Assembly (NCBI RefSeq): GCF_900217905.1
Contig: NZ_OBMO01000014.1
Coordinates: 62,001-126,000, forward strand
Direction: 5' to 3'
From: Alloalcanivorax xenomutans
Lineage (GTDB): Bacteria; Pseudomonadota; Gammaproteobacteria; Pseudomonadales; Alcanivoracaceae
DNA: 64,000 bases
Below are positions 5,996 through 61,690 of the stretch, one piece after another. Positions within the stretch are counted from its first letter, which is position 1. The number at the start of each line of letters is the position of its first letter. Position numbers and translations under genes: made by a program. A model generated the notes under the pieces. The model ran no database searches. It was not told where the DNA came from and was given only the letters and a program-made list of their open reading frames with translations.

Positions 5996-6242
5996 AATGT
6001 AAACTCCAAGGGTTAGGCCTCCACGTCCCCTCATGACCCAACCTCCGGTCTCCCCTTCCCTAATAAATAGAGAGGAAGCGCCTGGAAGCACCCCGAGCCA
6101 TGTGTCGGAACGTGTGTGTCGTTGTTTACCCGGCCGGAGCCCCCATTTCCCGGTATTGGGAAGGGTTGCCCGGTCCAAGGCTCCACTCCTCAGCGCCGAA
6201 CGGTTACAATGCGGCACCGCCGACGAGTGAGAAAGCGGGCGC
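5996..6242 (-). other. rpsB 5' leader, about 240 nt
   Basis: From the putative start point near 6236 to the rpsB ATG there are about 240 untranslated bases with no supportable coding frame. Long leaders upstream of rpsB are known in gammaproteobacteria to hold S2 autoregulatory RNA structure. I infer a similar role here but did not derive a fold. Confidence 0.35.
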
Positions 6243-14111: not shown

Positions 14112-15686
14112 ATGACCGTCGTGATCGACACCAATCCCGCCACAGGCAAAGCCGTAGCCGAACTCAATGAGACCGACCTCGCCACTTTACCGGGGCGTTT
14201 CGAGAAGGCGCGCCAGGCTCAGCGGATCTGGGCGGCCAAATCGTTCCGGGAACGGGCCGTGCACATCAAGCGCATGCGCAATTACATTCGCGACAACGCC
14301 GAGGAACTGGCCCGTGTAGTCAGTGAAAGCAACGGCAAGACGCTGGTCGATGCCCTGGCCACCGAAGTGTTGCCCTGTGCTCTCGCCTGCCAGTGGTATG
14401 GCCGTAACGCGGAGAAAGTCCTGGCGGCGAAACGCCGCCCCGGCGGCAGTCTGTTGTTCGCCAATAAGCGCACCGAGATCCGCCGCCTGCCCCTGGGCGT
14501 CGTGGGCATCATCAGCCCCTGGAACTATCCCCTGTCGATTCCGTTCGGTGAAATCATCATGGGCCTGATGGCCGGTAACGCCGTGCTGCTGAAGGTGGCC
14601 GCGGCCACTCCGGCGGTGGGCCGCGCCATCGAGGGCATCATCGAGGCCGGCCAATTACCGGACGGGCTGTTCCAGCATATCGTCGGTTCCGGCTCGGCGG
14701 TGGCCACCGCCTTCTTTGAAAACGGCGTGGACAAGCTGTTCTTCACCGGCAGTGTCAACGCCGGCAAGGTGCTGATGGCCCAGGCCGCGCAAACACTGAC
14801 GCCGTTGTCGCTGGAGCTGGGCGGTAACGACCCGATGATCGTGCTGGCCGACGCCGACCTGGAACGGGCCAGCAACGGCGCCGCCTGGGCCGGCTACCAG
14901 AACGCCGGGCAAAGCTGCGGCGGCGTCGAGCGCGTCTATGTGGAAGCTTCGGTGTACGATGACTTTGTCGAACTATTGGCGAAGAAGACCCGAGCCCTGC
15001 GCCATGGCCCCGGCAACGATAAAAGCATCCCGGTGGATATTGGCAGCCTCACCACCGCAGGCCAGAAACGCACGGTGGAACAACATCTGGAAGACGCCCT
15101 CGCCAAAGGCGCGCGCATTGAGGCTCAGTCACGACCTGTGGGCGACGTGGAAAACGGCTATTTCCTGCCCGCCACCCTGCTTACCCGGGTCAGCGACGAC
15201 ATGCTGGTGATGCGTGAAGAAACCTTCGGCCCGATCATTGCCGTCACCGCCGTGGCCAACGCCGAGGAAGCCCTGGAAAAAGCCAACGACTCCAAACTGG
15301 CCCTGACCTCCTCGATCTGGACCCGCGACAACAAAAAGGGCCGCGCCCTCGCCGCCCGGCTGGAATCCGGCGTCACCACCCTCAATGACCACCTCTATAG
15401 CCATGGCCTGTCGGAAACCCCTTGGGGCGGCTGGAAGGAATCCGGCATCGGTCGCACCCACGGCCCGGAGGGTCTGGAGGAAATGACCCACGTCAAAGCG
15501 ATCAACTGGGACCTGCTCCCGGCCAAACGTAACCTCTGGTGGTACCCGTTCGACCGCGCCACCTACAAGGGCCTGCTCAACGCTCTGTACTTTGCTTTCC
15601 CCAAAGGCCCACTGCAATGGCTCGGCGCCAGCTTGAAGCTGACTCCGTTCCTGGTCTGGAAAATGTTTGGGAAAAGCAGAGACTAG
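14112..15686 (+). CDS. aldehyde dehydrogenase with hydrophobic C-terminal tail
   Basis: NAD(P)-dependent oxidation of an aldehyde to the acid. It has 524 residues. Catalytic Cys in QNAGQSCGGVERV and catalytic Glu in LELGGNDPM are present; the cofactor-site SPWNYPLSIPFGE and FTGSVNAGK are also seen. Unusually, the usual KPSE-type motif reads LLKVAAATP, keeping Lys but losing Pro. The last 45 residues (from YPFDRATYKGLLNALYF) are hydrophobic/basic, as in membrane-associated fatty aldehyde dehydrogenases, so a medium/long-chain fatty aldehyde substrate is plausible (inference). The TAG stop overlaps the start of a heptad-armed element. A GGAG ten bases upstream supports the start. Confidence 0.88.
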   Translation: MTVVIDTNPATGKAVAELNETDLATLPGRFEKARQAQRIWAAKSFRERAVHIKRMRNYIRDNAEELARVVSESNGKTLVDALATEVLPCALACQWYGRNAEKVLAAKRRPGGSLLFANKRTEIRRLPLGVVGIISPWNYPLSIPFGEIIMGLMAGNAVLLKVAAATPAVGRAIEGIIEAGQLPDGLFQHIVGSGSAVATAFFENGVDKLFFTGSVNAGKVLMAQAAQTLTPLSLELGGNDPMIVLADADLERASNGAAWAGYQNAGQSCGGVERVYVEASVYDDFVELLAKKTRALRHGPGNDKSIPVDIGSLTTAGQKRTVEQHLEDALAKGARIEAQSRPVGDVENGYFLPATLLTRVSDDMLVMREETFGPIIAVTAVANAEEALEKANDSKLALTSSIWTRDNKKGRALAARLESGVTTLNDHLYSHGLSETPWGGWKESGIGRTHGPEGLEEMTHVKAINWDLLPAKRNLWWYPFDRATYKGLLNALYFAFPKGPLQWLGASLKLTPFLVWKMFGKSRD

Positions 15687-15820
15687 TTAATAAGTAACAA
15701 GTAACAGTGAATAGTGAAAAACACCGTTGCAGGAACGCATGAGGGGATTTGCAATGTACGCAAAACCTTTTCGGTGGCTCTTGTTTCGCTGTTGACTATT
15801 CACTGTTCATTCTTAACTGC
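15685..15820. repeat. heptad-armed inverted element A
   Basis: The left arm (15685-15716) and right arm (15791-15820) are inverted and made of seven-base units of the form CTRTTMM (for example CTATTCA, CTGTTCA, TTCTTAA read on the right arm), ending in TTAACTGC. The 74-base core is unique. It lies between the convergent aldehyde dehydrogenase and EamA genes. The left end begins within the dehydrogenase stop codon and the right end stops five bases before the EamA stop. Related elements: 35216, 50614, 61470. Confidence 0.8.
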
Positions 15821-35125: not shown

Positions 35126-35332
35126 TCGGCGAGCCCCCTTCAGATTCCCTTCTGTGACCCCTTGAAGGCCTGATCGATCTCCAGGTTCCACGGATGGAAC
35201 CGGGCTCCCGTCAAAGCAGTGAATAGTTAATAGTGGACAGTGAATAGCTCGCGGGAAAAGCGTGAGCCTTATTTCCAGGAATATGAAAGTAAAGAGGCCG
35301 CATCCATCATCTGGGCGCGGCCTCTTTGTTTT
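35126..35332 (+). ncRNA. candidate small RNA downstream of the LexA-like promoter
   Basis: The interval from the predicted start to the terminator-like hairpin is about 205 bases. It contains a local hairpin GGTTCC-ACGGAT-GGAACC (35184-35201) and the left arm of heptad element B. The only ATG frames are 10 and 31 codons with poor ribosome binding sites. Existence of the RNA is inference from promoter and terminator only. Confidence 0.3.
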
Positions 35333-35392
35333 CAGCTTCCAACCGGCGCATCCCGCGCAACTATTCCCTATTCACTGTTAACTATTAACTGC
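35216..35392. repeat. heptad-armed inverted element B
   Basis: The left arm 35216-35247 and right arm 35359-35392 are inverted heptads (right arm units CTATTCC, CTATTCA, CTGTTAA, CTATTAA, then CTGC). The core holds a terminator-type hairpin (35291-35332). The right end stops 5 bases before the bdh stop codon. Related to elements A, C and D. Confidence 0.85.
35291..35332 (+). terminator. intrinsic terminator inside element B core
   Basis: The stem AAAGAGGCCGC (35291-35301)/GCGGCCTCTTT (35317-35327) is followed by GTTTT. The A-rich left flank means it could also act on the opposite strand, at the 3' end of the bdh/liv transcript. Confidence 0.75.
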
Positions 35393-35397
35393 TTCTC

Positions 35398-50613: not shown

Positions 50614-50820
50614 GCAGTTAAGAGTGGATAGTGAATAGTTAACCGAGAAAAAAACCAAAACAGGCTTAGCCGCTGTGGGAGCTTGCCTGCAAGCGAATGG
50701 GGTTTGCTCGGGCGCTTGCCAATATTCGCTTGCAGGCAAGCTCCCACAGAAAGCGCATGGACCACATTTTTTTCGCTATTAACTATTAACTATTCACTGT
50801 TCCCTATTCACTCTTAACTG
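50614..50820. repeat. heptad-armed inverted element C (with nested REP pair)
   Basis: The left arm 50614-50643 and right arm 50776-50820 are inverted; the right arm reads in six consecutive heptads CTATTAA, CTATTAA, CTATTCA, CTGTTCC, CTATTCA, CTCTTAA, then CTG. The core holds a REP pair (50673-50749). The left end starts 3 bases after the DUF1835 stop; the right arm supplies the stop codon of the hydrolase gene on the other strand. Confidence 0.88.
50673..50749. repeat. REP-like inverted pair (copy 3 of 3)
   Basis: Arms 50673-50698 and 50724-50749 are perfect 26-base inverted copies with outer CTGTGGGAGC and inner AAGCGAAT, spacer 25 bases. Same outline as the copies at 13907 and 20373, here nested in heptad element C. 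Confidence 0.88.
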
Positions 50821-51694
50821 TCTTTTTTTCTTCTTTTCGAATGTGCTCCACCAAAAGCTCCGCCACCGCATCCGGTTGTTGCAGGTGCAGGAAGTGGCCG
50901 GCGTCGGCCAGAGTTTTGACGTAGAGGCCTTCCGGGAAGTCACCGGGGTAGATGGTGTGGTCCAGCAGGCGCGGGCTCATGCAGCCGTCGCTTTCGCCGA
51001 GCAACACCTGGGTCGGAACCCGGGTTTCTCCCAACAGTGTCTTGCTGGCCTGACGCAGGTCCCGGCGCCATAGCCGGGGCAAGTGCCGGTACCAGCCCAG
51101 GGCGGCGGACAAGACGCCGGGTTGGGCCAGGGTGTGCTTGGCCTGCTCCAGATAACGGCCGGCTTCCCAGCCCGGCGACCAGCGCCGCCACAGTGTCGCG
51201 ACACCGTCCAGGTCGTTGCGGTTGAGCCAGGTCTCCGCCGCCAGTGGCAGTTGGAAAAACGGAATATAGGCACTCAGCCCCAATTGCTCCGGTACCCGCA
51301 GCAGCGCCTGGGGTAAGCGCTTCAAAGGCGGTATCGCCAGCGCGGAAAAAGTGCTGAAGGTTTCCGGATAGCGCGCGCAGGCCAGGTAGCCCAACACCGC
51401 GCCCCAATCGTGGCCGACCAGGTGCAAACGCCCGCCCAACTGATCGGTGAAGGCCATCAGATCCTCCAGCGCGGCGGTCAACGCATAGTCGCCACTGCCC
51501 GGCTGACAGGAGGGTGCGTATCCACGCAATGCCGGCGCCACCGCGGTATAACCGGCGCGCGCCAGCCGCTGCATGATATCGGCCCAATTCTCATGGGTAT
51601 CCGGAAAGCCATGCAGCAACAATACCGGCTCGCCGTCACCGGTCAGCAGCGCCGGAAAGCGCAGATCGCCATTCACCAGTTCAACCTGTTTCAC
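50804..51694 (-). CDS. alpha/beta hydrolase (epoxide-hydrolase/haloalkane-dehalogenase-like)
   Basis: 296 residues. Oxyanion HGFPDTHENW (residues 28-37), Asp nucleophile in HLVGHDWGAV (Asp96), and histidine in DAGHFLHLQQP near residue 270. The Asp nucleophile fits epoxide hydrolases or dehalogenases rather than Ser esterases; the reaction is not determined. The last codons (TVKSE) and TAG stop lie inside repeat element C. Overlaps the acylphosphatase by four bases. Confidence 0.85.
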   Translation of the reverse strand: MKQVELVNGDLRFPALLTGDGEPVLLLHGFPDTHENWADIMQRLARAGYTAVAPALRGYAPSCQPGSGDYALTAALEDLMAFTDQLGGRLHLVGHDWGAVLGYLACARYPETFSTFSALAIPPLKRLPQALLRVPEQLGLSAYIPFFQLPLAAETWLNRNDLDGVATLWRRWSPGWEAGRYLEQAKHTLAQPGVLSAALGWYRHLPRLWRRDLRQASKTLLGETRVPTQVLLGESDGCMSPRLLDHTIYPGDFPEGLYVKTLADAGHFLHLQQPDAVAELLVEHIRKEEKKTVKSE

Positions 51695-61469: not shown

Positions 61470-61690
61470 GCAGTTAATAAGGAACAATGAATAGTGAATA
61501 GTTTCGCGTGGCAGATCCTTCCACGCAGATAGTACAGAGGCCGCGTCCAAAGCCCTGCGCGACATTATCGTCATCAAGAAAACAAGCCGCTTCACGGCTG
61601 CGGCCAGACGTTATCGATACTCAATCGTCCCCCGGCTACGCAATGTTTTTGATTTTCGCTGTTAACTATTCACTGTTCCCTATTAACTGC
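61470..61690. repeat. heptad-armed inverted element D
   Basis: The left arm 61470-61502 and right arm 61661-61690 are inverted; the right arm reads CTGTTAA, CTATTCA, CTGTTCC, CTATTAA, then CTGC. The 158-base core shares AGAGGCCGC(G/A)TCC with element B. It fills most of the 339-base DUF58-betT spacer; the remaining 115 bases before betT have no clear promoter. Confidence 0.85.

What the first reader, a model, noticed from the sequence alone, without database searches (positions are those of the whole stretch)
15685..15820. Family of intergenic elements with inverted arms built from a degenerate heptamer
Elements A (15685), B (35216), C (50614) and D (61470) share inverted arms of about 30-45 bases that read in register as seven-base units CTRTTMM and end in TTAACTGC, while the cores (74-158 bases) differ completely. 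Three sit between convergent genes, and all lie within a few bases of a stop codon. Shared ends with dissimilar contents suggest the arms can capture or be rebuilt around different DNA, unlike a normal MITE. B and D cores share AGAGGCCGC(G/A)TCC. I cannot name a described family that matches.
Basis: seen in the sequence. Interest (0 to 1): 0.72.

Follow-up and report, generated by a model that had tools for sequence, protein, structure and literature searches.

The report
Heptad-armed elements tied to S23 protein
Dozens of small hairpin-shaped DNA elements in this bacterium have arms built from a seven-base unit, and arms of the same kind flank the genes of a poorly understood small protein (S23) in very different bacteria, which ties together two unexplained features of bacterial genomes and makes the tie testable.

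Summary
Elements A-D are real: 22 window matches to a 21-base heptad pattern against 0 in 100 shuffles; 197 overlapping matches genome-wide against 0 for the reversed pattern. Cores are modular, not unrelated.

In sister species the same sites are nearly always occupied (23 of 24, 23 of 25, 26 of 27 placed), but arm type switches en bloc: TT heptads in G000/G007, TC heptads in G006, mostly TC in G008; cores are swapped, inverted or kept.

One element per genome encodes an S23/IVP four-helix-bundle protein. This subtype occurs in 14 of 57 genomes; 13 of them have at least 10 heptad matches, against 0 of 43 others.

In a scan across bacteria, S23 genes are flanked by 7-base-periodic arrays (left 51 of 77, right 49 of 78; control windows 6 of 135; other periods 0-2 except harmonic 14), inverted in 46 of 49 loci.

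Best reading: A-D are ORF-less members of an S23-linked element class. That S23 recognises the arms, and how arms are rewritten, is inferred; two of nine genomes do not fit, and no insertion event was seen.

The parts
15687..15721 (-). Element A, left heptad arm
15789..15820 (+). Element A, right heptad arm ending CTGC
15722..15788 (.). Element A core, box type (TTGCA..., ...ACGCAA)
   Evidence: reading by eye
35213..35247 (-). Element B, left heptad arm
35291..35327 (.). Element B central GC-rich hairpin module (AAAGAGGCCGC...GCGGCCTCTTT), shared with many family members
   Evidence: not flagged by the terminator scan
35361..35395 (+). Element B, right heptad arm
50618..50645 (-). Element C, left heptad arm
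50674..50749 (.). REPIN-like palindrome forming the core of C
   Evidence: many further copies in G006-G008; name recalled
50776..50822 (+). Element C, right heptad arm; the stop of the converging frame (50804) lies inside it
61474..61501 (-). Element D, left heptad arm
61536..61548 (.). Half of the GC-rich module (AGAGGCCGCGTCC) in the core of D
61659..61690 (+). Element D, right heptad arm

Best explanation
A-D are ORF-less members of a class of small chromosomal elements built as heptad arm - core - inverted heptad arm. The ORF-bearing member, one per genome in this family, encodes an S23/IVP four-helix-bundle protein (hS23). SHOWN: inverted heptad arrays flank many S23 genes across bacterial phyla; in this family hS23 co-occurs with abundant dispersed heptad arms; sites persist near gene ends while arm type changes en bloc and cores are swapped, inverted or kept. 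INFERRED: the S23 protein recognises the heptad array (as hairpin, cruciform or RNA), and when an S23 allele of another specificity arrives, elements with matching arms displace or convert the residents in place by element-to-element exchange that uses host replication or repair. The elements are tolerated next to stop codons because T heptads carry stop codons and form stable RNA hairpins.
For: Abundance and inverted pairing. hS23 gene inside arms in 12 genomes read; hS23 and heptads co-occur, 13 of 14 against 0 of 43. S23 loci across phyla: period 7 in 51 of 77 left and 49 of 78 right flanks, other periods 0-2 except 14, control windows 6 of 135; inverted in 46 of 49; 12 of 12 plasmid loci looked at, of 25 hits; 26 of 30 loci of relatives have an array on at least one side. 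Site persistence with arm switching; core kept while both arms switch (G019 L084 and G044 L390). hS23 clade and the arms around the gene agree in 8 of 8 genomes of the genus; the dispersed majority agrees in 7 of 9.
Against: G010 has a C-clade hS23 but T elements (128 against 6), and G019 has hS23 arms of a third type but T elements (201 against 10). AAGCTNC arrays in G003 and G046 do not match the arms of the S23 genes that I fetched there. No binding, mobility or target duplication shown; nested footprints not enriched (7 of 269 flanks, controls 6 and 4). Arm-to-arm covariation not significant. 4 of 30 loci of relatives show no array by score, and one third of flanks in the wide scan fall below the threshold. 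The 57 relatives are not independent, T arms were not counted in 19 of them, and the cut-off of 10 was set after seeing the counts (G001 without hS23 has 9).
Confidence: 0.55

Rival explanations
1. Passive repeats: heptad arrays grow by polymerase slippage at hairpins, S23 genes are cargo of one such hairpin element, and species differences come from ordinary recombination that brings in other species' intergenic alleles.
For: Long homogeneous runs of one unit occur (L045, L047, L095, L266, L279); hS23 itself was exchanged between lineages; G008 has elements with one T and one C arm.
Against: Nearly all sites of G006 are C and of G000 T although flanks are 80-100% identical with no run of identity at the sites; C arms have the same unit order in two genera; co-occurrence with hS23.
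Confidence: 0.25
2. Ordinary MITE or REP-like repeats moved by an unidentified transposase in trans; the S23 gene is a passenger.
For: Many copies, terminal inverted arms, presence in some species only.
Against: No heptad-flanked transposase seen in the stretches read; 0 of 30 Y1-transposase loci have paired arms, one (L177) has a single weak match; the S23 link spans phyla; no target duplication seen. Other transposase families were not searched.
Confidence: 0.12
3. Host-selected bidirectional terminators or mRNA 3'-end hairpins: the elements stay because they end transcripts of converging genes.
For: Position beside stop codons, strong folding of B (z -11.4), weaker for A (z -3.6), GC-rich hairpin module; sites persist.
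Against: The terminator scan did not flag B's central hairpin; this alone does not explain period 7 or S23. It may be true in addition.
Confidence: 0.1
4. An Avd-like retro-mechanism: S23 works with a reverse transcriptase, as Avd does in diversity-generating retroelements.
For: Predicted fold of an hS23 resembles Avd (4dwl, TM about 0.76, Foldseek E 0.04).
Against: No RVT_1 match in 8 of 14 hS23 genomes, including single-contig, element-rich G006.
Confidence: 0.04

Closest known systems
23S rRNA intervening sequence (IVS) with S23p frame, Coxiella burnetii (PMC4990558; abstract and passages seen)
   Same: S23 frame between inverted ends (28-bp stem) and tandem heptamers GACAGAT beside the frame.
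   Different: Sits in 23S rRNA and is cut out by RNase III; ours are intergenic, dispersed and mostly without a frame. The passages seen do not generalise the heptamers.
GGGAATC / GGGGATT heptamer repeats of Xanthomonas and Nostoc (PMC4692102; passages seen)
   Same: Heptamers, many (70 and 75 cases) as inverted pairs, positions kept between related species.
   Different: Other unit; the terms S23 and four helix do not occur in the text; authors found no general link to mobile elements. I did not test S23 flanks there.
TAACTGA repeats of Beggiatoaceae, Cyanobacteria, Bacteroidetes (PMC4679880; abstract and passages seen)
   Same: Seven-base intergenic units with stop codons, sporadic distribution.
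   Different: Mostly direct repeats upstream of start codons; one inverted case; an RNA-binding regulator was proposed.
MITEs and REP/REPIN elements
   Same: Many small inverted-repeat copies between genes; REPINs occur inside some cores here.
   Different: No transposase or RAYT link found; arms are arrays of a unit that change en bloc.
Avd of diversity-generating retroelements
   Same: Four-helix fold similar to predicted hS23.
   Different: Needs a reverse transcriptase; absent by RVT_1 from 8 of 14 hS23 genomes.

Membership tests
S23/IVP protein family (TIGR02436, PF05635), for the gene inside arms | Profile match over the curated cut-off | tested here: met
   TIGR02436 92 and 99.8 bits (cut-off 24), PF05635 78.5 and 90.5 (cut-off 33.8) for G000 and G006 proteins
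23S rRNA IVS element | Located in a 23S rRNA helix | tested here: not met
   A-D and the hS23 element lie between protein-coding frames
23S rRNA IVS element | RNA hairpin excised by RNase III | not testable with these tools
   B folds strongly, cleavage unknown
MITE | Ends shared with an autonomous transposase-bearing element | tested here: inconclusive
   The coding member found carries S23, not a transposase; only the Y1 family was searched
MITE | Target-site duplication | tested here: inconclusive
   No clean empty site found among mapped sites
REP/REPIN | Linked RAYT (Y1) gene flanked by the same repeats | tested here: not met
   0 of 30 loci with paired arms
Heptamer tandem repeats of bacteria | Tandem 7-base units, intergenic | tested here: met
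Diversity-generating retroelement | Reverse transcriptase | tested here: not met
   absent by RVT_1 in 8 of 14 hS23 genomes

The most novel reading that the evidence does not exclude
S23/IVP proteins define an unrecognised, phylum-wide class of genome-colonising element. Each S23 allele recognises its own seven-base unit, element arms are arrays of that unit, and when the allele changes the arms of resident elements are rewritten or displaced in place across the chromosome, without transposase or reverse transcriptase. Much of the unexplained excess of heptanucleotide repeats in bacteria would be arms of such elements.
Probability: 0.4. Interest if true: 0.93.

Novelty: new variant of a known kind. 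Interest (0 to 1): 0.8.

Why it matters
Heptanucleotide repeats are reported as the most abundant class of longer simple repeats in most genomes surveyed (survey cited in PMC4679880, passage seen), without an agreed cause, and S23/IVP proteins are a widespread family with solved structures and no function that I know of. Inverted heptad arrays around S23 genes in many phyla join the two and give simple tests (binding, deletion, evolution). An en bloc, site-preserving switch of arm type between sister species fits no standard transposition model that I know.

Tried and rejected
REP-transposase link: 30 Y1 loci from 16 genomes, none with paired heptad arms, one (L177) with a single weak match. 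Reverse-transcriptase dependence: rejected as a general need. Mirrored unit order of the two arms of one element: convincing by eye in a few elements, not significant (p 0.25 and 0.10, 30 elements). Nested insertion of new elements into old arms: a few likely cases (L194, L198, L205, L225), no enrichment (7 of 269 flanks, controls 6 and 4). Strict match of hS23-arm type with dispersed type: fails in G010 and G019. S23 arms as a full account of AAGCTNC arrays: 12 of 13 genomes with such arrays have an S23 gene, but G003 and G046 do not match the arms fetched there. Rfam: nothing at the elements. Terminator scan of B: central hairpin not flagged. Literature: ten searches of the held library listed no paper linking S23 genes in general to heptad arms; most subscription journals are not covered.

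Full report
1. Observation. The 21-base pattern CTRTTMA x3 has 22 window matches at up to 3 mismatches and none in 100 shuffles. The genome (G000, 4.35 Mb, 47 contigs) has 197 overlapping matches at up to 2 mismatches, 0 for the reversed pattern. In the window plus 40 stretches chosen around hits (734 kb) there are 83 arrays: 30 inverted pairs, one of which is the S23-coding element, and 23 single arms; the 40 stretches read backwards give 1. I did not count arms in the rest of the genome.

2. Anatomy. A typical element is GCAG plus about four units, a junction GCGCG or CGAAAA, a core, the other junction, and about four inverted units ending CTGC, often followed by T's. By eye, cores are assembled from a GC-rich hairpin RAGGCCGCGCCCA...TGGGCGCGGCCTY, boxes TTGCGNNNNCGCAA, or a REPIN-like palindrome. 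B and D share the first because it is a family module. RNA folding is far better than shuffled for B (z -11.4) and moderately for A (z -3.6). A T-type arm (left arm of B) has stop codons in all three frames of one strand, a C-type arm in two. Eight contig ends of G000 run into the ends of one of two IS elements located inside heptad elements ('IS3-like' is recalled from the end sequence).

3. Distribution. Exact T arms occur in 10 of 37 relatives, in two genera; of 12 same-genus relatives 4 have none and 2 have 1 and 3. A second arm type, here 'C', has TC where T has TT: CTGTCAA CTGTCCA CTATCAA CTGTCAA, in the same order in both genera. Its reversed control is not independent, because the unit nearly reads the same backwards, and it gives many matches. 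A contig of G044 equals one of Alcanivorax jadensis T9 in length and position, so the family is probably Alcanivoracaceae (inference).

4. Orthologous sites. For 28 paired G000 elements both flanks could be placed in at least one of three sister species. G007: 24 placed, 22 T, 1 C, 1 without heptads. G006: 25 placed, 23 C, 2 without. G008: 27 placed, 19 C, 3 T, 4 mixed, 1 without. Flank identity 80-100%. Sites were chosen because G000 is occupied, so gains elsewhere are undercounted. In about 190 kb around the window's region two further sites have a single arm in one species only (G006 against G008; G008 against G006 and G007). Of arms typed: G000 51 T and 5 mixed of 56; G007 42 T and 2 C of 44; G006 46 C and 2 none of 48; G008 41 C, 9 T, 1 mixed, 1 none of 52. 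Cores at one site can be replaced (D, L074), inverted (A and B, G006 against G008, by eye), or kept with both arms switched (G019 L084 and G044 L390, whose right flanks also align). In G008 three elements have one T and one C arm (L051, L067:9077, L076).

5. The gene. One element (L043:9743-10188) holds a 118-aa frame matching TIGR02436 and PF05635, between frames that I recognise as nrdR and glyA (recalled names; read as frames in G000 and G011, and glyA in G006; flank sequence alike elsewhere). The protein and its arms were read in 12 genomes; for G024 and G046 my extraction failed, though one search lists a match. Among 57 genomes this subtype (hS23, my grouping of the matches) is in 14; 13 of these have at least 10 heptad matches, T exact and C at up to 1 mismatch added, against 0 of 43 others. 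T was not counted in 19 of the 57. The exception G042 has 4. G001, without hS23, has 9, just under a cut-off set after seeing the counts. Fisher gives 5.7e-12, but relatives are not independent.

6. Alleles. In the window's genus hS23 falls into a T clade (G000, G007, G011, G005; 83-99% identity, T arms around the gene) and a C clade (G006, G008, G009, G010; 86-99%, C arms), 67-74% between clades, although G000 and G006 DNA is 92-94% identical over the main matches of the window's stretch. So the hS23 locus itself was exchanged. Arms around the gene fit the clade in 8 of 8. The dispersed majority fits in 7 of 9 genomes where both types were counted (T/C: G000 166/16, G005 119/22, G006 6/187, G007 148/39, G008 48/131, G009 15/109, G011 64/19; not in G010 128/6 and, with exact T counting, G019 201/10, whose hS23 arms are of a third type). 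The T and C patterns had different settings.

7. Generality. Of 41 S23 matches in relatives, 30 loci were fetched: 26 have a 7-periodic array by score on at least one side, 16 on both, 4 on neither; units differ between loci (AAGCTGC, GTCGGAC, AGGATNC, GAGTTGC and others). Of 25 plasmid hits I looked at 12; all 12 have arrays on both sides, from Spirochaetota, Bacteroidota, Bacillota, Cyanobacteriota and Chloroflexota; two (L283, L285) are not clearly inverted. With one threshold, period 7 is in 51 of 77 left and 49 of 78 right flanks and on both sides in 37 of 75; periods 4-6, 8-13 and 15 in 0-2; period 14 (harmonic) in 34 and 34; windows 1.2 kb away 6 of 135 (gene end approximated for 59 loci). 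By record titles ten phyla are among the 80, and loci above threshold on at least one side come from nine; the one Acidobacteria locus is below it. Where both sides score at least 9, the units are inverted in 46 of 49 loci, direct in 1, tied in 2; 44 of 49 agree in 6 or 7 bases against 17% of random pairs. The query motif was LSKQ[LI]LRSG, so other subfamilies are covered only by the loci of relatives. Of 9 viral-contig loci 8 were scored; 5 have a score of 20 or more on at least one side.

8. Mechanism. Shown: linkage, co-occurrence, site persistence, en bloc arm change, modular core exchange. Inferred: S23 recognises heptads; allele replacement drives arm replacement; exchange goes element to element at hairpins. 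The predicted structure of the A. jadensis hS23 is a confident four-helix bundle (pLDDT 94) close to solved S23 proteins and, more weakly, to Avd. A reverse transcriptase of family PF00078 is not needed. No target duplication or clean empty site was found, so insertion itself is not shown.

9. Known or new. The nearest described object is the 23S rRNA IVS with S23p (PMC4990558, abstract and passages). Heptamer repeats are described in Beggiatoaceae (PMC4679880, abstract and passages), Thiomargarita (PMC4853749, passages) and Xanthomonas/Nostoc (PMC4692102, passages). Ten library searches listed no general link between S23 genes and heptad arms. I call it a new variant of a known kind, with a real chance that it deserves its own class.

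Noticed in passing
L047:70, L049:9517, L058:70, L062:4287, L064:70, L071:70, L075:9301, L077:9785: Eight G000 contigs end in the ends of one of two IS elements that lie inside heptad elements, so these IS may favour the element cores, as some IS do with REP palindromes (recalled).
   Followed up: partly
window 50674-50749; sites A, C, D and L048 in G006/G008: REPIN-like palindromes lie inside heptad cores; at site C the middle of the REPIN is inverted between G006 and G008 (by eye).
   Followed up: partly
L283, L284: On plasmids of Chlorohelix (Chloroflexota) and Gloeocapsa (Cyanobacteriota) the S23 gene sits at the same place between a DUF1156 gene and a Swt1-like HEPN gene.
   Followed up: no
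L285: On a Pseudanabaena plasmid the S23 gene lies between a csx2 gene and cas1; in Monoglobus (L278) a broken S23 frame lies between hsdS-like and hsdR genes.
   Followed up: no
L279: In a Nostoc plasmid the S23 element with a very long heptad array is followed by xisH and xisI genes; the Beggiatoaceae paper notes xisH/xisI in genomes with TAACTGA repeats.
   Followed up: no
L278, L310, L326: S23 frames with an in-frame stop, still beside heptad arrays or S23-like flanks: coding members decay to non-coding ones.
   Followed up: no
window 6012-6136 (- strand): t44 RNA family match, the only Rfam match in the window.
   Followed up: no
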